Below, one piece after another: positions 39,385 to 50,309 of a stretch of 64,000 bases of DNA. Below the pieces are notes generated by a model. It made no database searches, was not told the DNA's origin, and worked only from the letters and a program-made list of their open reading frames with translations. How positions within the stretch are numbered: position 1 is the first letter of the stretch; each line of letters starts with the position of its first letter. This stretch comes from Rheinheimera sp. EpRS3. Lineage in GTDB: Bacteria; Pseudomonadota; Gammaproteobacteria; Enterobacterales; Alteromonadaceae. The position numbers and the translations under genes are program-made. The stretch is taken from NCBI RefSeq assembly GCF_001513785.1, contig NZ_LNQS01000007.1, positions 186,001 to 250,000 on the forward strand, read 5' to 3'.

Positions 39385-39414
39385 TTGTAATAATTCTACG
39401 CTTGGCGATATTAT
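39385..39414 (+). promoter_or_regulatory. candidate sigma-70 promoter of glgP
   Basis: TTGTAA (39385-39390), 18-bp spacer, TATTAT (39409-39414), 37 bases before the start codon and downstream of the nested palindrome. Confidence 0.5.
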
Positions 39415-39450
39415 GTAGCTATCACAGGCAGAAAACTATCAGGATTTGTA

Positions 39451-41937
39451 ATGAAAAAACATACCTCAACTGCCAGTACTGGTGTAACACAAATTAACAC
39501 CGAACAGCTGAAAGATCAGATCATCCGTCATCTACATTCCACCTTAGGTACCGATGTAAATAAAGCCAGCCCACAGGCATGGTGGCGTGCTACCTGTGCT
39601 GCGGTAAACGAGCAGGTATACGATGGTCTGCGCAATACTCAGCGTACGCACTATGAAAACAATACCCGCGCTTTGCATTATTTCAGCCTGGAATACCTGA
39701 TGGGCCGTTTGTTCAGCAATAACCTGCATAACCTGGGGTTGTATGAGCAAGCCAAGCAGGCACTGTCCGAGCTGGGGCTGAATATTGCTGATCTGGAAGA
39801 TCAGGAAGAAGACATGGCGCTGGGTAATGGTGGCCTTGGGCGTTTAGCGGCATGTTTTATTGATTCTCTGGCCACACTGAATTATCCGGCAATTGGCTAC
39901 GGTATTCATTACGAGCATGGTCTGTTTCAACAAAGTTTTCAGGACGGCCGTCAGATAGAGCGGCCAGATAGCTGGCGCGAATATGCTAACCCCTGGGAGA
40001 TTTGTCGGCCGGAATCTGTGCAGGAAATTTCAGTATACGGTTATGTTGAAACGGTATACGACCTGCAGGGTAAAATGAAGAAAGTATGGCACCCTGGTCG
40101 TATTATTAAAGGTGTGCCATGGGATATTCCGATTGTAGGCTATAACGGCAGCTCAGTGAATGTGTTGCGATTATGGGAAAGTCGGGCCAGTGACTTTTTT
40201 AACTGGGACGTATTTAACTCTGGTGGTTATATCGACGCTTCGCGCGAGAATATCGAAGCAGAAACTATTTCCAAAGTGCTGTACCCGAATGATGAAACCG
40301 AGGCCGGCAAAGAACTACGCTTAATTCAGCAGTACTTTTTTGTTTCCTGTTCATTAAAAGATATTATTCGCCGCTATAAACGCACTCATGCTGACGACTG
40401 GAGCGACTTTGCCAAACAGGTGGTTATTCAGCTGAATGACACACACCCGGCAGTGTCGATTCCGGAGCTGATGCGTATTCTGGTTGACCGTGCTGAAATG
40501 CAATGGGATCAAGCCTGGAATATCTGCCAGCAGGTCTTTGCTTACACTAACCATACCCTGTTGCCCGAAGCTCTGGAGAAATGGCCGGTACGGTTGTTCG
40601 AAAAAGTACTGCCGCGCCATCTGGAAATTATCTACGAAATTAACCGTCGCTTCCTGGTAGAACAGGTTGATGTGTTATGGCCGGGCGATAACGATAAAAA
40701 GCGTAAATTGTCGATTATCGAAGAAGGCCATGATCCTATGGTACGGATGGGCCACTTATCAGTAGTGGGGTCGTTCCGGGTGAATGGTGTGGCTGAAATT
40801 CACTCAAAACTGGTTAAGTCAGATTTATTCCCGGAAATGGTGGCCTTGTGGCCGGATAAATTTACTAATGTAACCAATGGTGTTACGCCAAGACGCTGGT
40901 TAAAAGCCTGTAACCCGAAACTGGCAAAATTACTGGACGACAATATTGGCACTGAATGGCCAACTGATTTAAAGCAACTGTCTAAATTTGCTGCCTTTGC
41001 TGATGACGCCAAAATTCAGGACGCCTTTATGGCGATTAAGCAACAGAATAAAGCTGACCTGGCAACGGTGGTGAAAAAGCTGACGCATATTGATATTGAT
41101 CCGCATGCCATCTTTGATATCCAGATTAAGCGGCTGCATGAGTATAAGCGTCAGCACCTGAACCTGTTACATATACTGGCATTGTACCGCCGTATTCTGC
41201 AGGAGCCGGATTACGACATGGTGCCGCGCGTATTTTTGTTTGGTGCCAAGGCTGCGCCGGGTTATAAGCTAGCCAAAGAAATTATTTATGCCATTAATAA
41301 AGTCGCTGAGAAAATTAACCACGATAAGCGGGTGAAAAACCGCTTAAAAGTGGTGTTTATGCCTAATTATCGGGTAACTCTGGCCGAGAAAATGATACCG
41401 GCTGCTGACGTATCTGAGCAAATTTCTACTGCAGGTAAAGAGGCATCAGGCACCGGTAATATGAAGCTGGCATTGAACGGCGCTATTACGGTGGGTACTT
41501 TGGATGGTGCCAATATCGAAATTGCTGAGGAAGTGGGCGACGATAATATCGCCATCTTTGGTTTAACGGTAGATGAAGTAAAAGCCTTACATGCCGATGG
41601 CTACAACAGTATGGATTACTACTATGCTAATCCGGAAATTAAAGCCATTCTGGACTGGCTGGAAACAGACTATTTCACACCCGGTAAACCTGGCGAGTTA
41701 GCGGCCATTAAACGTAGTTTGCTGGAGGGTGGTGACCCTTATCTGGTGCTGGCAGATTTTGAAAGCTACGTTAAAGCCCAGCAGAAAATAGATCAGTGGT
41801 ATCGCGATAAATCACTGTGGGCTAAAAAAGCCATACTCAATACAGCCTCGGTAGGTAAGTTTACCTCTGATCGTTCCATCGAGGACTATGTAAGCCGGGT
41901 ATGGCATTTAGAGAAGTGTAATATCAGACGCGATTAA
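39451..41937 (+). CDS. glgP: glycogen phosphorylase
   Basis: GT35 phosphorylase, 828 aa. Releases glucose-1-P from glycogen ends. Conserved regions: [67 protein letters not shown] and the pyridoxal-phosphate site [15 protein letters not shown] with Lys672. No extra regulatory domain. Downstream of pgm and with its own promoter candidate; closed by a strong terminator. Completes the degradation branch begun by glgX and malQ elsewhere in the window. Confidence 0.97.
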
Positions 41938-41947
41938 GCTATTGTTG

Positions 41948-41974
41948 AAAAGCCTGTCAGTGACAGGCTTTTTT
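41948..41974 (+). terminator. Rho-independent terminator after glgP
   Basis: AAAAGCCTGTCA and TGACAGGCTTTTTT flank one G: a perfect stem with T-run, 10 bases after the stop. Confidence 0.92.
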
Positions 41975-41991
41975 ATGGCTGCAATATAGGC

Positions 41992-42021
41992 TTGCCAGCA
42001 AAGCTAGCAACGCCTTATAGT
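41992..42021 (+). promoter_or_regulatory. candidate promoter of the borosin-like locus
   Basis: TTGCCA (41992-41997), 18-bp spacer, TATAGT (42016-42021), directly after the glgP terminator and 26 bases before the methyltransferase start. Confidence 0.55.
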
Positions 42022-42047
42022 GTAAAAAAAGTATCAAGGACGTAATT

Positions 42048-42836
42048 TTGCAAACAGGTAGTTTAGTTTGTGTCGGCACAGGCATGACTCTGGGCTCGCA
42101 TATCAGCCCACTTTCCCGCAGCTATATCGAACAGGCTGATGTGGTGTTTGTATTGGTGGCCGATGGCATCACCGAAAAGTGGATAGAGCAGATGAATGCT
42201 GATGTGCGTTCACTCCAGCCTTACTATCTGGAAGGCAAATCCCGCATGCTTACTTATCGCGAGATGGTTGCTGCTATGCTGGTTGAAGTTAAAGCAGGCA
42301 AAAAGGTGGTAGGGGCCTTTTACGGTCATCCGGGCGTATTTGCCTGGGTGCCGCACAATGCCATCAAGCAAGCCCGTGAACTGGGTTTTACCGCCCATAT
42401 GGAGCCGGGTATTTCTGCAGAAGATTGTTTGTATGCCGATTTAGGCATCGACCCCGGTACTTACGGCTGCCAGCACTATGAAGCCAGCCAGTTTATGTTT
42501 TATAAACGTAATATCGATACTGCTGCTTATCTGATCTTATGGCAAATTGGTGTGGCAGGCGACAGATCGCTGGCAAAGTTCTCAACCAGCGCGGCTTACA
42601 GGCAAATACTGGTCGAGTTACTGAGGCAATATTATCCGGCAGAGCATCAGGTCATTTTGTACGAGGCTGTTACTTTACCAATTCAACAAACACGTATCGA
42701 GCAGATGCCGTTATCAGCTTTACCTGACGCGCTAATGGATTTGAAAACTACTTTAGTAATTCCCCCTGCAATGTCGATGCAACTCAACGATGCTCTGTTG
42801 GAACGTCTGGAAAAATTATCAGCAAGGCAGCAATAA
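42048..42836 (+). CDS. borosin-type peptide alpha-N-methyltransferase (SonM-like)
   Basis: 262 aa from a TTG start with AAGGA 7 bases upstream. The tetrapyrrole-methylase (TP-methylase) fold is indicated by GSLVCVGTGMTLGSHIS and FYGHPGVFAWVPHNAI, EPGISAEDCLYADLGIDPG and EASQFMFYKRNID. The sequence follows Shewanella SonM, the SAM-dependent enzyme that methylates backbone amides of the separate peptide SonA, almost block by block. Candidate catalytic residues correspond to the borosin Tyr/Arg set: Tyr60, Arg66 and Tyr70 (YYLEGKSRMLTY) and Tyr92. It lacks a fused precursor tail, so it is a split system; precursor-like genes follow at 43471 and 45653. General annotation might call it a SAM-dependent methyltransferase; porphyrin function is not supported. 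Confidence 0.88.
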   Translation: MQTGSLVCVGTGMTLGSHISPLSRSYIEQADVVFVLVADGITEKWIEQMNADVRSLQPYYLEGKSRMLTYREMVAAMLVEVKAGKKVVGAFYGHPGVFAWVPHNAIKQARELGFTAHMEPGISAEDCLYADLGIDPGTYGCQHYEASQFMFYKRNIDTAAYLILWQIGVAGDRSLAKFSTSAAYRQILVELLRQYYPAEHQVILYEAVTLPIQQTRIEQMPLSALPDALMDLKTTLVIPPAMSMQLNDALLERLEKLSARQQ

Positions 42837-42837
42837 G

Positions 42838-43398
42838 GTGCAACAAGGTGAGGATGTTACCAAACTACAGGCTATTTGTAGCAGCTCTGTGCGATTACAC
42901 ATGACGTTGTTGTCTGAAGGCGATAGAACATTGTACTGTTCGCTGATGACGGATAAAGCAAGTATGAGTTATGTCAGCAGCCCGTTAAGTGAAGACAAAG
43001 CTCACCGTAGCTTTGAAGCTGCACTTAAGTCTAACCAACAAAGGCATATTCAACGTTGTTATTTCAGGGTAGCTTTAAAAAGTAATAATCAGAGTATTGG
43101 TATTGCTTCTGTTAATCAGCTGGATTTGGAAAAAAAATACGCAGAAATTGGCCGGATGTTACTACCAAAGTGGCATAGTAAAGGCCTGGGCACAGAGCTT
43201 AGTGGCATGCTTATCCGCTGGCTGGCAGCTAAGTGGGGCATTACGACAATCACTAAACAGATCCAGGCTGGTAATCTTGCCGCAGTTTGCTCTGCTCAAA
43301 AATTAGGTTTTACTAAAGCCGTATCGCAGTCCTGTCCGGCTACATTAACAGAGCAATATCAGTTGAAATTAGCCACCCGCGTTTTGGACGCGAAGTAA
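42838..43398 (+). CDS. GNAT acetyltransferase in the borosin-like locus
   Basis: 186 aa from a GTG one base after the methyltransferase stop; ATG 42901 is a possible later start. A RimJ/RimL-like GNAT: SVRLHMTLLSEGDRTLYCSLMTDKASMSYVSSPLSEDKAHRSFEAAL, then VNQLDLEKKYAEIGRMLLPKWHSKGLGTELSGMLIRWL (the acetyl-CoA loop is SKGLGT) and NLAAVCSAQKLGFTKA. The tight spacing suggests co-translation with the methyltransferase. RimJ/L relatives acetylate N-termini or side chains, so the peptide product is one possible substrate; this is inference from position only. Confidence 0.8.
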   Translation: MQQGEDVTKLQAICSSSVRLHMTLLSEGDRTLYCSLMTDKASMSYVSSPLSEDKAHRSFEAALKSNQQRHIQRCYFRVALKSNNQSIGIASVNQLDLEKKYAEIGRMLLPKWHSKGLGTELSGMLIRWLAAKWGITTITKQIQAGNLAAVCSAQKLGFTKAVSQSCPATLTEQYQLKLATRVLDAK

Positions 43399-43470
43399 AG
43401 TTGCGTCTTTATCGGTTTCAGCTTATTTTGGCAAGGTAATACTTAAACCTAATAACAACAAGGATGGGAA

Positions 43471-43740
43471 ATGGACAACATTATCAGTTTAATTGAGCGG
43501 TTGGGAGCAGACAGTAAACTACGCTACAGCGCTAAATCTGCATTTGATGAGACTAGCTTGGCATTATCAGAAGCCAAAACGTTAATTAGCCAGGGGAACA
43601 TTGAAGAGCTGGAAATGCTGCTCAATGTAAGGCATAAAATTGTTTGTATGGTTTTTCCTGTTGAAGAGCCTAAAGATCAACCTAACCAACCAGCTGACGA
43701 TGACGAGCCGGGTGATGTAAAAATGCGTGTAGCTGTTTGA
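43471..43740 (+). CDS. borosin precursor-like peptide 1
   Basis: 89 aa with AAGGATGGGA before the ATG. The N-terminus (MDNIISLIERLGADSKL) and the central helix (EAKTLISQGNIEELEMLLN) match the two helical blocks of the SonA-type borosin leader, where an LGQDA-like turn and a ...GDMEKLKTL helix occur at the same places. A hydrophobic, Cys-containing stretch follows (VRHKIVCMVFPVEEP, residues 53-67), then an acidic, Pro-rich tail ending RVAV. The stretch is the likely methylated core. It shares layout with the second peptide at 45653 and stands 13 bp before a cyclase gene. A role as precursor is inferred; no modification site is proven. Confidence 0.72.
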   Translation: MDNIISLIERLGADSKLRYSAKSAFDETSLALSEAKTLISQGNIEELEMLLNVRHKIVCMVFPVEEPKDQPNQPADDDEPGDVKMRVAV

Positions 43741-43753
43741 TTCGATCAGATTT

Positions 43754-45517
43754 ATGGTCTTTTTTTTGCGAAAAATGTTCTTGGGGGCAATGTTATTGCT
43801 TGCCCCTAATTTTCTTTATGCGACAGAGCCTCCTCCCGAGAATGGGTATCTGCCCCAGCTTGAGAAAGTTGATGATTTAAGACTATCAAATTTTAGAGCC
43901 TTTCAGCATGAACTAAAGAGACTAGATAAATATAGTTCCAGGTTTGATGCAGATGAATCTGATTATCTGAACTTACTAAAAGCCAGCGAAGCGACATTGC
44001 TTAGCAATTATCATGAAACGCCGGCCTTACTACAAAACCTGCTTTACCGTCCTGCGAACGATGTACTTCGGGTTCGAGCTCTGGCATTGTTGGTAAATTC
44101 TTATGTTCTTGCTCAGAACTACGCTAATGCTTTTGAGTATTTTGAAATCTTACAGGCTGAAGGACATCAGCTAACTGATGAAAAAGCACTGGTGCAGCGT
44201 CTTGGCGTAATTGCGCTGCTATACATTAAGTTAGAAAAGTTTGATTTAGCCCAGTATTACTTGCGTGATATCCACTCCTTAGCTTTATCTGACATCAACC
44301 TTTGTCGTTTGTATACGCAAAAAATTGAAGCAATGTCTGCTCAGGCTAAACAGCAGGATTTTGATAAAGAATCTGAGTTTGGTTTTAGTCTTTGCCAACG
44401 TACCGGTGAGAAAATAGCTGCTGGTTTTATTGTTGCCGAAATCGTTCGTTACAATATTAATCAAAAGCAGTTTACAGCTGCAATAAACAGCTATGAGAAC
44501 TATCGCGAAACACTTAATACAACAAATTACTCTTTCCTTATAGCCAAGGTAAATGCGTTAGTATCACAAGCCTACTTTGCTGAGAACAATATGCCAAAAG
44601 CAGAGTCGTTGGCAAAAGAAGCGCTGCTATTTTCAGATACCCACCCCTTTAGTTTGCCTGTTATTTTGGCTGCTAAGTCGCTGTATGAAATAGCTAAATC
44701 TCAAAACAGATTTCAAGAATCACTAAAATATCTGGAGTTGTTAAACGCAGCTAAAACGTCGTATGAAAAAGAGTTATCTTCACAGCTTCTGGCTTATCAC
44801 CTGGCTCGGGGAGAAATTGAAGTTAAGAATCAACGCATAGCGCTGTTAGATAAAGACAACGAGTTACTATCATTACAAAGAAACATATACGCGCAAGAGG
44901 TTCGGCAACACAGGTTACTTATGTTATTGCTATTTGTCGTGCTGCTTATCGCTAGTTTTATAGCCTATCGCGGTATGAGCGGTCGTAAACGCTTTAAAAA
45001 AATTGCTGAGTTTGACCAATTAACCGGTATCAGCAACCGTTATCATTTTAACAATTTGGCTAAAGTCGCGCTGGATTACTGCGAGCTTAACGCTAAGCCC
45101 GCTGCACTAATTCTGTTTGACCTGGATTACTTTAAAACTATTAATGACAACTATGGTCATGCTACCGGAGACTGGGCGCTGCAACAGGTGGTAAAAACCT
45201 GTCGTAACTTTATGCGCAACAATGATGTATTTGGCCGTATTGGCGGTGAAGAGTTCGCTGTGGTGTTGCCGGGCTGCCACGCCGATAAAGCCGCACTACT
45301 GGCGGAGATATGCCGTGATGCTATTGCTACTATAGATACGACAGAAAGCGGTTATACGTTCCCGCTTAGTGCCAGTTTTGGTGTCAGCTCTTCCGATATA
45401 TCGGGCTATCAGCTTAAACAGTTGTTAGCTGATGCAGATCTGGCAATGTACAGAGCCAAGCAATCAGGACGGGATCAGATTGCAACTTATACCCACCTTA
45501 TGGATAAAGCAGACTAA
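43754..45517 (+). CDS. periplasmic helical-repeat sensor diguanylate cyclase 1
   Basis: 587 aa. Signal/anchor at the N-terminus (FLRKMFLGAMLLLAPNFLYA), a long periplasmic helical-repeat (TPR-like) region to about residue 350, a coiled-coil (EIEVKNQRIALLDKDNELLSLQ), one transmembrane helix (about 386-405) and a cytosolic GGDEF domain. The active-site signature is GGEEF (497-501), which is catalytically competent in this family, and an allosteric I-site RNND (488-491) lies five residues before it. It therefore probably makes c-di-GMP with product inhibition. Starts 13 bp after precursor 1 with a weak ribosome-binding site, suggesting coupling. Its sensor part is visibly AT-rich (18/60 GC at 43921-43980). 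Confidence 0.88.
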   Translation: MVFFLRKMFLGAMLLLAPNFLYATEPPPENGYLPQLEKVDDLRLSNFRAFQHELKRLDKYSSRFDADESDYLNLLKASEATLLSNYHETPALLQNLLYRPANDVLRVRALALLVNSYVLAQNYANAFEYFEILQAEGHQLTDEKALVQRLGVIALLYIKLEKFDLAQYYLRDIHSLALSDINLCRLYTQKIEAMSAQAKQQDFDKESEFGFSLCQRTGEKIAAGFIVAEIVRYNINQKQFTAAINSYENYRETLNTTNYSFLIAKVNALVSQAYFAENNMPKAESLAKEALLFSDTHPFSLPVILAAKSLYEIAKSQNRFQESLKYLELLNAAKTSYEKELSSQLLAYHLARGEIEVKNQRIALLDKDNELLSLQRNIYAQEVRQHRLLMLLLFVVLLIASFIAYRGMSGRKRFKKIAEFDQLTGISNRYHFNNLAKVALDYCELNAKPAALILFDLDYFKTINDNYGHATGDWALQQVVKTCRNFMRNNDVFGRIGGEEFAVVLPGCHADKAALLAEICRDAIATIDTTESGYTFPLSASFGVSSSDISGYQLKQLLADADLAMYRAKQSGRDQIATYTHLMDKAD

Positions 45518-45652
45518 AAATTTATTGTCGTTCTGTATTATAACGTTACTGTAGTAGTTGTAATTCGTTACGGCCGGGTGCAGGATGGTATTTAAATTCT
45601 GATTTAATTTAAAACCTTTCACCGTGATATAACAACTATACAGGGACTAACA

Positions 45653-45928
45653 ATGAATAAAGTGATTAGCTTGCTTGAAACTTTAGGCCAGAATGCTGCG
45701 TTACACAGCCTGGATACTGCAGCTTTACAAAAAGTATTTAACCCGTTAGATATGGATGTTCAGGTGCAGCAGGCTATCTTGAGCAGGGATCACGTTCAGT
45801 TAGAAGCCTTGTTACAGGTGCGGAACAAAGTGATATGTGCAATTTGCCCGGCAGAAGAACCGCCACAAGATGTGCCCGAGAATGACGACGAGACTGAGGA
45901 AAAGTCATCGGTTGCCGCTAACTTTTAG
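45653..45928 (+). CDS. borosin precursor-like peptide 2
   Basis: 91 aa with AGGGA 6 bases before the ATG. MNKVISLLETLGQNAAL at the N-terminus and VQVQQAILSRDHVQLEALL in the middle parallel the SonA-type leader and precursor 1. The core-like stretch VRNKVICAICPAEEP (residues 56-70) aligns with that of precursor 1 with 8 of 15 residues identical; it has two Cys where the first has one. A DDE-rich acidic tail (PENDDETEEK) ends in VAANF. Followed at once by the second cyclase gene. A 136-bp gap after the first module may hold its own promoter. Confidence 0.72.
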   Translation: MNKVISLLETLGQNAALHSLDTAALQKVFNPLDMDVQVQQAILSRDHVQLEALLQVRNKVICAICPAEEPPQDVPENDDETEEKSSVAANF

Positions 45929-45929
45929 A

Positions 45930-47675
45930 TTGGCTCAGCCACTGCTAATTAAACTTATAAAACCAGCATTGATAATCTTTGCTGGTTTCGTTGCTATTGC
46001 ACCAGCCAGTGAAATGACCGAGCGACTGGACGCACTGGATGATCTTAAAGTCGTTGATGTAGCACAGTTTAGTGAAAAACTGGCAGCTATTGCTGAAAGC
46101 CCCGGGAAGCTGACACAGTATGAACAAGACTATGTAGAGTTACTGCAAAGCTATGAAATGTCGCTGCGTGGTGATTTCGGCGGAGCAGCAGCGATGCTGG
46201 AGTCAATGCTTGCCCGTGATACTGAAGCGGAAATTGTTTTTCGGGTTAAAGCACTGTTGGTGAATGTGTTTGCAGTAACCAGAAATTACCGCAATGCGTT
46301 TTCTTATCTTGAACAAATAAGCCGCGAAGTTCAGTCTGTAACATCAACCCGGGCAAAAGAGCACGGCCTGAGCGTGCTGGCTTATACTTATAATCAGCTG
46401 TCAGAGTTTGATATTGCCAGGTTTTATGCTCAGGTATTGATCGATAGCGCAACATCAGAAAAAACACTGTGCCATGGCAGGCATCATTTAATCGAATCGT
46501 TGTACGGGTTAGGGCAATGGGAGCTTTTCAGCACTACGGTGGAATCATCAGTAAGTCATTGTGTTAATAACCGGGAGCTGATTTTTGCTAACCTTATCCG
46601 CCTTAAATACTTTAACTATTTATTACAGACAGAACAGTACCAGCAGGCTGACAAGTATTATGATTCATTCATAGATTCAGTTACTAAAACAAATTACCCA
46701 TTTCTGCTAGCAGGAGTTTTAGGCGCAGGGGCGCAAAACAGTCTGGCACTGGCAGAATACGACATTGCAGAAGAGCGGGCTAATCGCACCTTACAGCACT
46801 CGGGCGCCTCAGAGTTTAGTTTACCGGTGTTAAATGCTTATTATGTGTTATATCAGGTTAACTATACACGGCAAAATTTCAATAAGGCATTGGAATATCA
46901 TGTAAAGTATACTTCTGCTCTAAAAGCGAATAGCGATGACCGCTTTGTAAGACAACAAGCCTATCATGTTGCTAAAGCGGAAATAGAAGTGAAAGATCAG
47001 CGCTTAGCCTTACTCGATAAAGATAACGAATTACTTTTTTTACAAAAAAACCTGTATCAGCAAGAAGTAAAACAAAACCGTCTTATTATGCTGTTGCTAC
47101 TGCTAATCGTAGCTTTGGCCAGTTTTATGGCTTACCGCGGTATGTCCGGGCGTAGTCGCTTTAAAAAAATTGCCGAATATGATCAGTTAACCGGTATTAG
47201 TAACCGTTATCACTTTAACAACCAGGCCAAAGTAGCGCTGGACTATTGTGAGCTTGATGCGAAACCTGCAGCACTGATTTTGTTTGACCTGGACCACTTT
47301 AAAAATATAAACGATCAATGCGGCCACGCCACAGGCGATTGGGCCCTGCAACAGGTGGTAAAAACCTGTCGTAATTTTATGCGCAATAATGATGTATTTG
47401 GCCGCATTGGCGGGGAAGAGTTTGCTGTGGTGTTACCGGGCTGCCATGCTGATAAAGCTGCATTGATGGCCGAAATATGCCGTGATGCCATTGCTACTAT
47501 CGATACAAAAGCCAGCGGTTGTACGTTTCCTCTTAGTGCCAGTTTTGGTGTCAGCTCTTCCGATACGTCTGGCTATCAGCTTAAACAGTTACTGGCTGAT
47601 GCTGATCTTGCAATGTACAAAGCGAAGCAGTCCGGGCGGGATCAGGTATCAATGTATACAGAAGAGCTGGGCTGA
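45930..47675 (+). CDS. periplasmic helical-repeat sensor diguanylate cyclase 2
   Basis: 581 aa if translation begins at the TTG at 45930, one base after the precursor stop. This start gives a signal peptide (LLIKLIKPALIIFAGFVAIAPA) that aligns with the first cyclase; ATG 45882, inside the precursor gene in another frame, is the alternative. Architecture as in cyclase 1: periplasmic helical-repeat sensor, coiled-coil, TM helix (LIMLLLLLIVALASFMAYRG) and a GGDEF domain with GGEEF (from residue 494) and the RNND I-site. The GGDEF domains of the two proteins are about 90% identical by eye, the sensors only distantly similar. Sensor base composition is normal here (33/60 GC at 46141-46200). Confidence 0.85.
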   Translation: MAQPLLIKLIKPALIIFAGFVAIAPASEMTERLDALDDLKVVDVAQFSEKLAAIAESPGKLTQYEQDYVELLQSYEMSLRGDFGGAAAMLESMLARDTEAEIVFRVKALLVNVFAVTRNYRNAFSYLEQISREVQSVTSTRAKEHGLSVLAYTYNQLSEFDIARFYAQVLIDSATSEKTLCHGRHHLIESLYGLGQWELFSTTVESSVSHCVNNRELIFANLIRLKYFNYLLQTEQYQQADKYYDSFIDSVTKTNYPFLLAGVLGAGAQNSLALAEYDIAEERANRTLQHSGASEFSLPVLNAYYVLYQVNYTRQNFNKALEYHVKYTSALKANSDDRFVRQQAYHVAKAEIEVKDQRLALLDKDNELLFLQKNLYQQEVKQNRLIMLLLLLIVALASFMAYRGMSGRSRFKKIAEYDQLTGISNRYHFNNQAKVALDYCELDAKPAALILFDLDHFKNINDQCGHATGDWALQQVVKTCRNFMRNNDVFGRIGGEEFAVVLPGCHADKAALMAEICRDAIATIDTKASGCTFPLSASFGVSSSDTSGYQLKQLLADADLAMYKAKQSGRDQVSMYTEELG

Positions 47676-47699
47676 TTTACTGTGTAACAAGCGTCAGGT

Positions 47700-47728
47700 T
47701 TGGCTGAGTGCGTTAACTGCGGTAGAAT
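47700..47728 (+). promoter_or_regulatory. candidate promoter of astE
   Basis: TTGGCT (47700-47705), 17-bp spacer, TAGAAT (47723-47728), 31 bases before the chosen astE start. Confidence 0.45.
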
Positions 47729-47758
47729 CAGTGCATTATGACAATCCGGAGCTGGCGC

Positions 47759-48829
47759 ATGGCGCAATTATCTACCCAACACGCCCAACTGCTGCAACAT
47801 GGCGAATTTCTGCAACTGACTCTTTCAAACCCTGATGGCTTGCCGTCATCACAGTTTACTTTACCTGATGGCACGGCCGTCAGTATTTTCGATACCGGCG
47901 TAATATGCTTTGAGCCGGTACTCTGTGAAAGCAATACCAAAGATATCGTTCTGTCCTGTGGTGTGCACGGCAATGAAACGGCGCCGATAGAGATTTGCGC
48001 TGAGCTGGTAAAAGACCTGCTAACCGGCCAACTTCAACTTAAACACCGTCTGTTAGTGCTGTTTGGCAACCCTGCGGCTATCAACGCCGGTACACGCGAA
48101 ATTAGCGAAAACCTGAACAGGCTGTTTTCCGGCCACTACAGCATGGGGGCAGGCCTGATTAACGCCGAACGCAAGCGCGCTAAGGCGTTGGAGGTGTATG
48201 TCAGCCGTTTCTATCAAGAGGCACGCGTAACTAATTCGGTGCCGCGTAACCGCTATTTATATGATTTACACACCGCTATTCGCGGCTCCCGTTTTGAGAA
48301 ATTCGCGGTTTACCCGTTTTTGCATAATAAACCGTGGCAAAAGGCTGAGTTTGAGTTTTTACAGGCCTGTGATGTCACGACAGTGCTGTTAATGCAAACC
48401 CCGGCTTCTACTTTTAGCTATTACGCTTCTAATACGCATGGTGCCAATGCCTTTACCATTGAGCTGGGCAAGGTGCAGCCGTTTGGCCAGAACAATATGC
48501 GCCGCTTTAGCAAAGCACGTGCCGCGCTGCGCCAATTGGTTAGCGAAGCAGCGGTGAGCACAGTAGATTTTGATGAGCAACAATTTCAGCTGTATCAGGT
48601 GTATCGCGCAATCAATAAACAAACGCAGGAGTTTAAACTGCACTTTGCCGATGACGTAGAAAACTTCACGGCTTATCCGCAAGGCACCTTACTGGCAACA
48701 GACGGTGATATTGAGTACAGAGTAGAGCGCGAAGGTGAAGCCATTATTTTCCCCAATGCCAAAGTGGCCATAGGCCAGCGCGCTATGTTGATGGTAGTGC
48801 CCACTACAGTGGCGCACAATATCGCTTAA
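47759..48829 (+). CDS. astE: succinylglutamate desuccinylase
   Basis: 356 aa from ATG 47759, chosen because GGAG lies 7 bases upstream; ATG 47738 in frame is the alternative. Last step of the arginine succinyltransferase pathway: N-succinylglutamate to succinate and glutamate. Zinc-peptidase-like fold with GVHGNETAPIEI (zinc His and Glu), the substrate loop SENLNRLFSG and the third zinc ligand in LYDLHTAIRGS. Other ast genes are not in this window. It stands alone between the borosin-like locus and bkdA1. Confidence 0.94.
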   Translation: MAQLSTQHAQLLQHGEFLQLTLSNPDGLPSSQFTLPDGTAVSIFDTGVICFEPVLCESNTKDIVLSCGVHGNETAPIEICAELVKDLLTGQLQLKHRLLVLFGNPAAINAGTREISENLNRLFSGHYSMGAGLINAERKRAKALEVYVSRFYQEARVTNSVPRNRYLYDLHTAIRGSRFEKFAVYPFLHNKPWQKAEFEFLQACDVTTVLLMQTPASTFSYYASNTHGANAFTIELGKVQPFGQNNMRRFSKARAALRQLVSEAAVSTVDFDEQQFQLYQVYRAINKQTQEFKLHFADDVENFTAYPQGTLLATDGDIEYRVEREGEAIIFPNAKVAIGQRAMLMVVPTTVAHNIA

Positions 48830-48931
48830 CGGCTGATTACCGCAGTAATAAACTGCTGTAAAGAGTAAATTTAAGCTGACAGTCGTCGACGCTGCCAGCC
48901 GGGCCAAACCCGGCCGGCGGTTGCAATGCAG

Positions 48932-48947
48932 TTTACGTAAAGGTAAA
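48932..48947. promoter_or_regulatory. candidate LiuR-type operator ahead of bkdA1
   Basis: TTTACGTAAAGGTAAA is a 7-2-7 inverted repeat with one mismatch. LiuR, a MerR-family regulator of branched-chain amino-acid degradation in gammaproteobacteria, is known to bind sites of this general TTTACGTnnACGTAAA kind; the bkd genes downstream fit. Assignment is by resemblance. Confidence 0.4.
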
Positions 48948-49048
48948 GTTGCCGCCGATAATAATCAGAACACACCGGTGCCAGCTAACGCCAGGCACAA
49001 AACGGGGAGAGCGGTTAAAGCCGCTATACTGGACGGTAGAAGCTAAGT

Positions 49049-49082
49049 TCCGCCAGCCTGATACCAAGGCCGGGCTGGCGGA
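49049..49082 (+). promoter_or_regulatory. hairpin in the leader region of bkdA1
   Basis: TCCGCCAGCC (49049-49058) and GGCTGGCGGA (49073-49082) form a 10-bp perfect stem around a 14-base loop, 42 bases before the bkdA1 start. No T-run follows. The rest of the 295-bp gap 48830-49124 contains a short GCCGGG/CCCGGC hairpin (48898-48914) and no gene that I can support. Confidence 0.55.
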
Positions 49083-49124
49083 GCTGCCACCTGTCTGACA
49101 CGTATAACAAACAAGAGACACCCT

Positions 49125-50309
49125 ATGACTAACCCAAATAACGCCACCATTACCACGGTGCACACTGCGGAGTTTACCGCCGGTGATGCGTTAAAAATTC
49201 CTACACTACGCATTCTACGTGACGATGGCAGCCTGTACGAAGGAGCGGTAGCGCCGGAGTTGGATAAAGCCACCGCCATTAAAATGTACGATACGATGGT
49301 GTTTACCCGTGTACTGGATGAACGCATGTTAGCTGCCCAGCGTCAGGGCCGCATCAGCTTCTATATGCAGTGTTTAGGCGAAGAGGCTACTACGGTAGGC
49401 AGCGCCGCGGCATTGGCAGAGCAAGATATGATCATGGCGCAGTATCGCGAACAGGGCGCGTTGCGTTATCGTGGCTTTACGCTGGAGCAGTTTATGAACC
49501 AGCTGTTTTCCAATGAAAAGGATTTGGGTAAAGGCCGGCAGATGCCGGTGCATTACGGCAGTAAAGACATTTACTATATGACCATTTCGTCACCGCTGGG
49601 CACACAGATCCCCCAGGCCAGTGGTTATGCCTATGCACAAAAGCTGCGCGGTTTACCTAACACCACTATTTGTTACTTCGGTGAAGGTGCGGCCTCAGAA
49701 GGCGATTTCCACGCCGGCTTAAATATGGCCGCGGTACACAAGGCTCCGGTGATTTTCTTCTGTCGCAACAATGGCTATGCCATTTCCACGCCGGCCAGTG
49801 AGCAATTTGTCGGCGATGGTATTGCCTGTCGTGCAGTCGGTTACGGTATGAAAGCACTGCGGGTAGATGGTGCCGACATTTTAGCGGTGTACCAGGCCAC
49901 TAAGATGGCGCGTGACCATGCACTTAAGCATAACGAGCCGGTGTTAATTGAATCTATTGCTTATCGCCTGGGCGCGCATTCTTCGTCTGACGATCCAAGT
50001 GGCTATCGCTCAAAAGAAGAAGAAGAAAAGTGGCGTCAGAACGACCCTATCGCCCGTTTCCGTTTATGGCTGGTAGAAAAAGGCTGGCTGAACGAAGCCG
50101 ACGATAAAGCCACTATTGAAGCGCTGCGTACCGAAATTCTCGATGCGTTAAAAGTGGCGGAAAAAGTGGCTAAGCCCGGCATAGAGCACCTTATTTCTGA
50201 CGTATACGCCGAGCCAATACCAGCATTACAACAACAATTAGATGAATTAAAAGCGCATATCCGTAATTACCCGGAAGCGTATCCGGTAACGGCGGGGAGA
50301 CTAGACTAA
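49125..50309 (+). CDS. bkdA1: branched-chain 2-oxoacid dehydrogenase E1 alpha subunit
   Basis: 394 aa. Thiamine-pyrophosphate subunit that decarboxylates the 2-oxo acids of Leu, Ile and Val. TPP motif [23 protein letters not shown] ending at [10 protein letters not shown]; phosphorylation-loop-like region [23 protein letters not shown] is typical of branched-chain rather than pyruvate E1. The N-terminal half has [18 protein letters not shown]. The E1 beta start overlaps its stop by one base (TAATG). Part of bkdA1-bkdA2-bkdB; no E3 gene is included, so a shared lipoamide dehydrogenase must serve it. Confidence 0.95.

What the first reader, a model, noticed from the sequence alone, without database searches (positions are those of the whole stretch)
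42048..47675. Split-borosin (RiPP) locus joined to two c-di-GMP sensor modules
A SonM-like peptide-backbone N-methyltransferase (42048-42836) and a GNAT (42838-43398) are followed by two repeats of the same module: small precursor-like peptide, then periplasmic-sensor GGDEF protein. Seen directly: gene order, spacing (1, 72, 13, 135 and 1 bp between genes), a promoter candidate right after the glgP terminator, and block-wise match of the enzyme to SonM and of the peptides to SonA as I remember them. Known: borosin enzymes methylate backbone amides, and Shewanella has a split enzyme/precursor pair. Inference: this is a two-precursor borosin pathway whose product or leader is linked to c-di-GMP signalling. 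I know of no characterised system coupling a borosin to diguanylate cyclases.
Basis: partly seen in the sequence, partly recalled or inferred. Interest (0 to 1): 0.93.

Follow-up and report, generated by a model that had tools for sequence, protein, structure and literature searches.

The report
Methylated-peptide signals paired with c-di-GMP receptors
A bacterium close to Rheinheimera carries a gene of the borosin family of peptide-methylating enzymes followed by two pairs of small precursor-like peptide plus c-di-GMP-making receptor; peptide and sensor differ together between close relatives while the output part stays the same, so each methylated peptide is likely the private signal that its neighbouring receptor would detect.

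Summary
The peptides are SonA-like precursors (a profile without SonA orthologues hits SonA's leader, E 7e-5; five-helix model). The link to a TPR sensor is conserved: 80 of 80 loci found through SonM alone, 78 of 80 more divergent ones. Conversely, 47 of 57 sensor matches of at least 100 bits in 118 genomes lie within 6 kb of a SonM. The output varies: GGDEF, histidine kinase or none. Against R. oceanensis, SonM is 96% and the first GGDEF domain 98% identical, but first sensor and first peptide only 35% and 46%; the adjacent second pair keeps 86% and 81%. Joint change of ligand and sensor with conserved output is the pattern of pheromone specificity types (ComX/ComP). Best reading: a borosin-derived peptide-signal system feeding c-di-GMP. 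Methylation, cleavage, export and binding are untested; the pepsin-like peptidase found near SonM in 22 genomes was not found in this one.

The parts
41950..41970 (+). glgP terminator hairpin upstream of the cluster
   Evidence: read in the sequence; not listed by the consensus scan
41992..42021 (+). sigma-70-like promoter candidate TTGCCA-18-TATAGT
   Evidence: such sites are not above chance in the region
42048..42836 (+). split-borosin peptide-backbone N-methyltransferase (SonM-like); Y60, R66, Y70 match SonM Y58, R67, Y71
   Evidence: PDB SonM E 8.8e-85 with alignment, residues counted by eye; catalytic residues named in PMC8429565
42838..43398 (+). GNAT acetyltransferase; predicted tailoring enzyme of the same peptide (in one open frame with SonM in L078, L080, L083)
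   Evidence: Pfam; fusions
43471..43740 (+). precursor peptide 1 (89 aa): five-helix leader 1-51, hydrophobic core IVCMVF 57-62, acidic tail
43639..43656 (+). predicted core of peptide 1 (residues 57-62), counterpart of SonA's methylated region
   Evidence: alignment; methylation itself untested
43440..44930 (+). exchange block: peptide 1 plus sensor 1 fall to about 45% nucleotide identity against R. oceanensis (L032), with about 80-96% on both sides
   Evidence: sliding identity
43754..45517 (+). receptor 1: signal-like N-terminus, predicted periplasmic TPR sensor, TM, GGDEF (GGEEF, I-site RNND)
43832..44911 (+). TPR sensor of receptor 1 (residues 27-386); conserved Cys184 and Cys214
   Evidence: AF2 mean pLDDT 90, pTM 0.60 for the whole protein; invariant cysteines
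44915..44965 (+). predicted transmembrane helix of receptor 1 (residues 388-404)
   Evidence: hydropathy
45005..45478 (+). GGDEF domain of receptor 1 (residues 418-575)
   Evidence: Pfam
45653..45928 (+). precursor peptide 2 (91 aa), hydrophobic core VICAIC 60-65, acidic tail
45930..47675 (+). receptor 2: TPR sensor, TM, GGDEF (start uncertain, 45837 possible)

Best explanation
This is a split-borosin-type gene cluster with two precursor-like peptides, each encoded directly before its own predicted membrane TPR-GGDEF protein, and it likely works as a pair of private peptide-signal circuits in which each backbone-methylated peptide would be the ligand of the neighbouring receptor and would set cellular c-di-GMP. 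Shown by sequence: a SonM-family enzyme with its active-site residues, two SonA-like precursors, receptors with an N-terminal hydrophobic segment, a TPR sensor, one predicted TM helix and an intact GGEEF site, conservation of the set, and joint change of peptide and sensor with the output kept. Inferred: SonM methylates the hydrophobic core of both peptides; a peptidase removes the leader; the GNAT modifies the freed peptide, possibly its N-terminus; the peptide reaches the periplasm or the outside by an unknown route; it binds its cognate TPR solenoid; the long helix from sensor through membrane to GGDEF carries the signal. One methyltransferase would serve both channels.
Against: No binding, methylation or c-di-GMP data. 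The peptides have no signal sequence, and among the neighbour clusters printed the only exporter recognised is an RND pump in 3 of 80 loci (Pfam). The pepsin-like peptidase seen near SonM elsewhere was not found in this genome. Peptide and sensor genes are adjacent, so any recombined block would move both. Pair counts are not independent; the clear cases come from a few lineages (Rheinheimera and Colwellia). The nearest neighbour by peptide and by sensor agrees in only 36 of 77 modules, against 25 of 77 for peptide and GGDEF, and L034/L037 keep peptides 74% alike with sensors at 48%. The 100-bit line was drawn by me; at E 1e-5 the sensor profile matches 102 of 118 genomes, four times in this genome (one weak match of 36.9 bits listed beside the two), so weak TPR relatives are common (at most 17 candidates per genome were scored). 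Eight of the ten distant sensor matches have no peptide beside them. TPR solenoids resemble each other generally: an APPBP2 and APC/C chains score higher than Rap. The histidine-kinase sensors score only about 26-72 bits and most lack the conserved cysteine pair, so their kinship to this sensor is weak. A GNAT is near SonM in only 14 of 80 divergent loci.
Confidence: 0.62

Rival explanations
1. Regulatory neighbour: the receptors sense some unrelated periplasmic cue and merely regulate, or are co-expressed with, a borosin whose product does something else (metal, nutrient or antagonism).
For: A SonM locus need not use GGDEF: in 28 of 80 divergent loci the sensor frame has none (26 if L112, cut by the contig end, and L148, with GGDEF in the next frame, are set aside). 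Sensor DGCs without a peptide exist (8 of 10 distant matches).
Against: Where GGDEF is missing a TPR protein is still there, and peptide and sensor change together while SonM and GGDEF do not.
Confidence: 0.17
2. Linkage artefact: conserved sonM/gnat on one side and conserved GGDEF on the other are recombination anchors, and whatever lies between is replaced as a block without functional pairing.
For: GGDEF parts of the two receptors are 88% identical, and L033's single GGDEF is 94-99% like module-2 GGDEF domains of four loci and the window while its sensor is 29-31%, so GGDEF domains seem to recombine.
Against: In R. oceanensis the block starts at the peptide, not in the GNAT; a peptide precedes the sensor gene across many genera; Colwellia arrays repeat peptide plus receptor as a unit.
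Confidence: 0.1
3. Antagonism and immunity: the methylated peptide acts on competitors and the polymorphic TPR sensor is a self-recognition or danger-sensing receptor for it.
For: Hypervariable paired genes are also typical of toxin-immunity pairs (general knowledge); TPR-only partners with signal-like N-termini exist.
Against: Cytoplasmic signalling outputs with GGEEF sites (148 of 155 receptors with a GGDEF match) are not needed for immunity; no recurrent exporter was recognised.
Confidence: 0.07

Closest known systems
Type IV split borosin SonM/SonA of Shewanella oneidensis (PMC8429565; abstract, three sections and passages read)
   Same: Separate methyltransferase of about 260 residues and short precursor with a five-helix binding domain; catalytic residues kept; precursors closely like SonA are themselves followed by a TPR-GGDEF gene (L132, L136, L141). 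S. oneidensis itself was not fetched.
   Different: Two different precursors for one enzyme, a GNAT, cores with a conserved Cys and Pro and a long acidic tail instead of SonA's short C-terminus.
ComQXPA and similar pheromone loci (PMC5385187, passages)
   Same: Variable modified peptide, variable N-terminal sensor half of the receptor, conserved C-terminal output half.
   Different: Gram-negative, backbone N-methylation rather than prenylation (recalled), TPR solenoid, c-di-GMP output, and the modifying enzyme is not part of the variable block in R. oceanensis.
Rap-Phr (RRNPP) peptide receptors
   Same: Predicted TPR solenoid aligns to Rap-pheromone structures; peptide gene beside receptor gene (for Rap-Phr recalled).
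   Different: Here the solenoid is predicted to be periplasmic and joined through a TM helix to GGDEF; identity about 10%.
RcbAB of Vibrio vulnificus (PMC12282931, abstract and outline)
   Same: A TPR domain controls a GGDEF domain of the same protein.
   Different: The partner is a TPR protein, not a modified peptide; the abstract names no SonM.

Membership tests
Split borosin (type IV) cluster | Discrete methyltransferase of the SonM/OphM family | tested here: met
   PDB search: SonM E 8.8e-85, OphM-type enzymes next; aligned 4-254
Split borosin (type IV) cluster | Active-site Tyr58, Arg67, Tyr71 of SonM | tested here: met
   Y60, R66, Y70 in the alignment; residues named
Split borosin (type IV) cluster | Separately encoded precursor with a borosin-binding (five-helix) leader | tested here: met
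Split borosin (type IV) cluster | Backbone N-methylation of the core | not testable with these tools
   needs co-expression and mass spectrometry
Diguanylate cyclase | GGDEF domain with intact active site and I-site | tested here: met
   GGEEF and RxxD in both window proteins; Pfam
Peptide-pheromone (specificity-type) system | Ligand gene beside receptor gene, conserved across lineages | tested here: met
Peptide-pheromone (specificity-type) system | Ligand and sensor polymorphic together, output conserved | tested here: met
   between species, not within one
Peptide-pheromone (specificity-type) system | Export of the peptide | tested here: inconclusive
   no recurrent exporter recognised within 6 kb; none sought genome-wide
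Peptide-pheromone (specificity-type) system | Specific binding and cell-density response | not testable with these tools
   bench assay needed
RRNPP/Rap receptor | Common ancestry with Rap proteins | tested here: inconclusive
   fold match only, about 10% identity; other TPR proteins score alike or higher

The most novel reading that the evidence does not exclude
Bacterial split borosins of this branch are a Gram-negative peptide-pheromone class: one backbone N-methyltransferase arms several private peptide signals, each read by a cognate TPR receptor whose sensor and ligand travel as an exchangeable specificity cassette, with interchangeable c-di-GMP or two-component outputs.
Probability: 0.5. 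Interest if true: 0.95.

Novelty: new variant of a known kind. Interest (0 to 1): 0.87.

Why it matters
The biological role of bacterial split borosins is open in what I could read: PMC8429565 (2021) says none of the pathways was yet tied to a final product, and a 2023 paper of which I saw only the title (reference list) reports one such product. If the pairing holds, it gives them a function (signalling), gives a ligand class for a group of orphan TPR diguanylate cyclases and perhaps kinases, and adds modified-peptide pheromones to Gram-negative bacteria. It is directly testable by exchanging sensors between two near-identical natural loci.

Tried and rejected
Rejected: cobalamin or siroheme methylase (those NCBIfam models are weak, far under cut-off). 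Rejected: chance adjacency of a common GGDEF gene (46 matches in the genome, only two with this sensor). No known RNA in the cluster (no Rfam match at gathering score, 39400-49200). Single-sequence PDB searches of the peptides found no SonA; only profiles did. The profile with SonA-like members scores E 1e-19 but is partly circular, so the one without SonA orthologues is relied on. A pepsin-like leader peptidase was sought in this genome and not found; itself warns that an empty answer shows nothing without a positive control. The structural comparison of the peptide covered 8 chains only. Foldseek on the receptor listed GGDEF structures in its first 50 rows.

Limits of the counts. Set A is the best 80 of 94 relatives. 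Set B is 80 places that I chose from those listed below the best-scoring ones, not all of them (SonM identity 37-68%, two with a stop inside). The window's own locus is not in these sets. L184, one of the two set B loci counted as lacking the sensor, has a GGDEF protein scoring just at the 25-bit line; L163 has none. In one search, 75 modules of set A passed (peptide found, sensor at least 330 and GGDEF at least 150 residues); both sets together have 193 sensor genes; set B was left out; two window modules were added. The peptide threshold is loose: 155 of 193 sensor genes got a peptide, and those of L080, L083, L094 and L110 look doubtful.

Literature. No paper in the held library has both 'borosin' and 'c-di-GMP'; one has 'borosin' and 'GGDEF'; five have 'borosin' and 'quorum sensing' (listing; one searched for passages); 'RiPP' with 'diguanylate cyclase' gave 45, of which 15 were listed, and none of those titles is about this; locus tags SO1478-SO1480 gave one paper. 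Two papers on split-borosin diversity and product are not held, so earlier discussion of the GGDEF neighbour cannot be excluded.
Full report
What is there. The nearest named loci are Rheinheimera hassiensis and R. oceanensis, both 96% identical in SonM. The six genes stand as described. The enzyme is a TP_methylase by Pfam, but its nearest solved relatives are SonM and then the fungal OphM-type borosin enzymes; SonM's Y58, R67 and Y71, named as active-site residues in PMC8429565 (discussion), are Y60, R66 and Y70 here. The GNAT is an Acetyltransf_3 protein; in three loci it is one open frame with the methyltransferase (L078, L080, L083), so it probably acts in the same pathway.

Conservation. 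Loci were collected by SonM alone. In set A (80 of 94 found) a protein with this sensor lies within 2.5 kb on the same strand in 80 of 80, with GGDEF in 79 (the contig of L070 ends inside the gene) and a GNAT in 74. The titles name Rheinheimera, Alkalimonas, Arsukibacterium, Colwellia, Shewanella, Alteromonas and relatives, Rhodanobacter, Dyella, Lysobacter and others. In set B (80 more divergent loci) the sensor is present in 78 of 80, a GNAT in 14, a recognised peptide before a sensor gene in 59. There the output varies: GGDEF in 50; none in the same frame in 28. Of the 15 longer frames without GGDEF, L112 is cut by its contig's end and the other 14 carry histidine-kinase domains: with receiver domains in L165, L168, L171, L189, the ATPase domain alone in L188, and both kinase domains in L170, L173, L174, L176, L177, L179, L183, L185, L190. 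Of the 13 shorter ones, the proteins examined of L120, L123, L147, L154, L178, L180 and L181 show TPR only; L148 has its GGDEF in the next frame. TPR-only proteins mostly keep a signal-like N-terminus, and those of L178, L180 and L181 end in a TM segment. So a TPR sensor, not c-di-GMP, is the constant partner of these genes; but the kinase sensors score low (about 26-72 bits) and most lack the cysteine pair, so common descent with this sensor is not secure for them. SonM itself occurs in 95 of 394 genomes of the order, 47 of 118 of the family and 12 of 369 of the class, three of these weakly.

The converse test. A profile of the sensor alone was searched in 118 genomes of the family. At E 1e-5 it matches 102 of them, because weak TPR relatives are common. 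Of the 57 matches of 100 bits or more (my threshold), 47 lie within 6 kb of a SonM start; of the ten others five are in genomes with SonM and five in genomes without. One distant locus (L226, two of the ten matches) has its own peptide and GNAT about 2 Mb from SonM; the other eight have no recognisable peptide.

Joint change of peptide and sensor. The two receptors of the window are 88% identical in GGDEF but 34% in the sensor; the peptides are 32%. Between the window and R. oceanensis (L032) the first pair shows GGDEF 98%, sensor 35%, peptide 46%, with SonM 96%; the second pair 96%, 86%, 81%. At nucleotide level identity is 90% in sonM and 88% in gnat, drops to about 45% at the start of peptide 1, stays there through the sensor, rises to 68% in the long helix and to 82-96% from the TM helix to the end of the GGDEF gene. 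In L036 and L067 the divergent block begins near the end of sonM and includes the GNAT. Against L031 no such block is seen. The R. oceanensis peptide and sensor share one nearest relative (L056, R. nanhaiensis: 56% and 60%, GGDEF only 75%). Colwellia L095/L101 show the same (SonM 97, GGDEF 91, sensor 35, peptide 45). Over 77 modules the partial Mantel correlation of peptide and sensor, given GGDEF and SonM, is 0.277 (0 of 1000 permutations as high); for the 38 cross-locus pairs with GGDEF of 90% or more the rank correlation is 0.94. Pairs are not independent, so these numbers describe and do not prove. Nearest-neighbour agreement is only moderate (36 of 77 against 25 of 77 for GGDEF). Three Colwellia loci hold four receptors for one SonM within the stretch fetched, not all with a recognised peptide.

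Interpretation. Variable ligand, variable sensor half, conserved output half is the pattern described for ComX/ComP (PMC5385187, passages). I infer that these are exchangeable specificity cassettes and that the mature methylated peptide is the ligand of the adjacent sensor. The chain of methylation, leader removal, GNAT modification, export, binding and c-di-GMP change is inferred at every step in this organism. Leader removal: a pepsin-like peptidase (PF00026) occurs in 43 of 394 genomes, 37 of them with SonM (Fisher p 5e-20), within 3.5 kb of a SonM start in 22; a gene of this kind is the most widely spread further neighbour in set A (25 of 80 loci, all same strand; Pfam on one). That such a peptidase, shewasin A, processes a borosin precursor is recalled, not read here. 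This genome has none by two searches, so another peptidase must act or cleavage differs.

Novelty. GGDEF is named in the legend of a borosin architecture figure (PMC11395268, legend only). I found no statement that a borosin is a signal, in the searches named under Tried and rejected; two relevant papers could not be read.

Noticed in passing
L063:4216-5511, L225:673-2112 and the cluster of 25 set A loci: Pepsin-like aspartic peptidase gene (PF00026) near SonM in several genera, same strand in 25 of 25; none in the Rheinheimera, Arsukibacterium and Alkalimonas members of that cluster, and none found in the window's genome.
   Followed up: partly
L078:5614-7029, L080:8905-10362, L083:8995-10353: SonM and GNAT domains in one open frame, probable natural fusions (Pfam).
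   Followed up: partly
L120, L123, L124, L125, L129, L147, L154, L155, L157: SonM loci with TPR-only proteins in place of the GGDEF receptor, most with a signal-like N-terminus; the two sensor cysteines are kept in those examined (L120, L123, L125, L147, L154, L155, L157).
   Followed up: partly
L226:3177-7952: Peptide, GNAT and two receptors about 2 Mb from the genome's SonM: possible substrate acting at a distance.
   Followed up: no
L035:8084-8938 and its cluster of 10 set A loci: A gene with a signal-like N-terminus and no Pfam match at 1e-5 ends shortly before SonM (median 38 bp) in Arsukibacterium, Rheinheimera and Alkalimonas.
   Followed up: partly
L047:12321-14129: Second receptor without a recognisable peptide before it.
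   Followed up: no
window 47738-48829: AstE/aspartoacylase-type gene downstream on the same strand; within 6 kb of SonM in 24 of 80 set A loci of the three related genera, probably plain synteny.
   Followed up: partly
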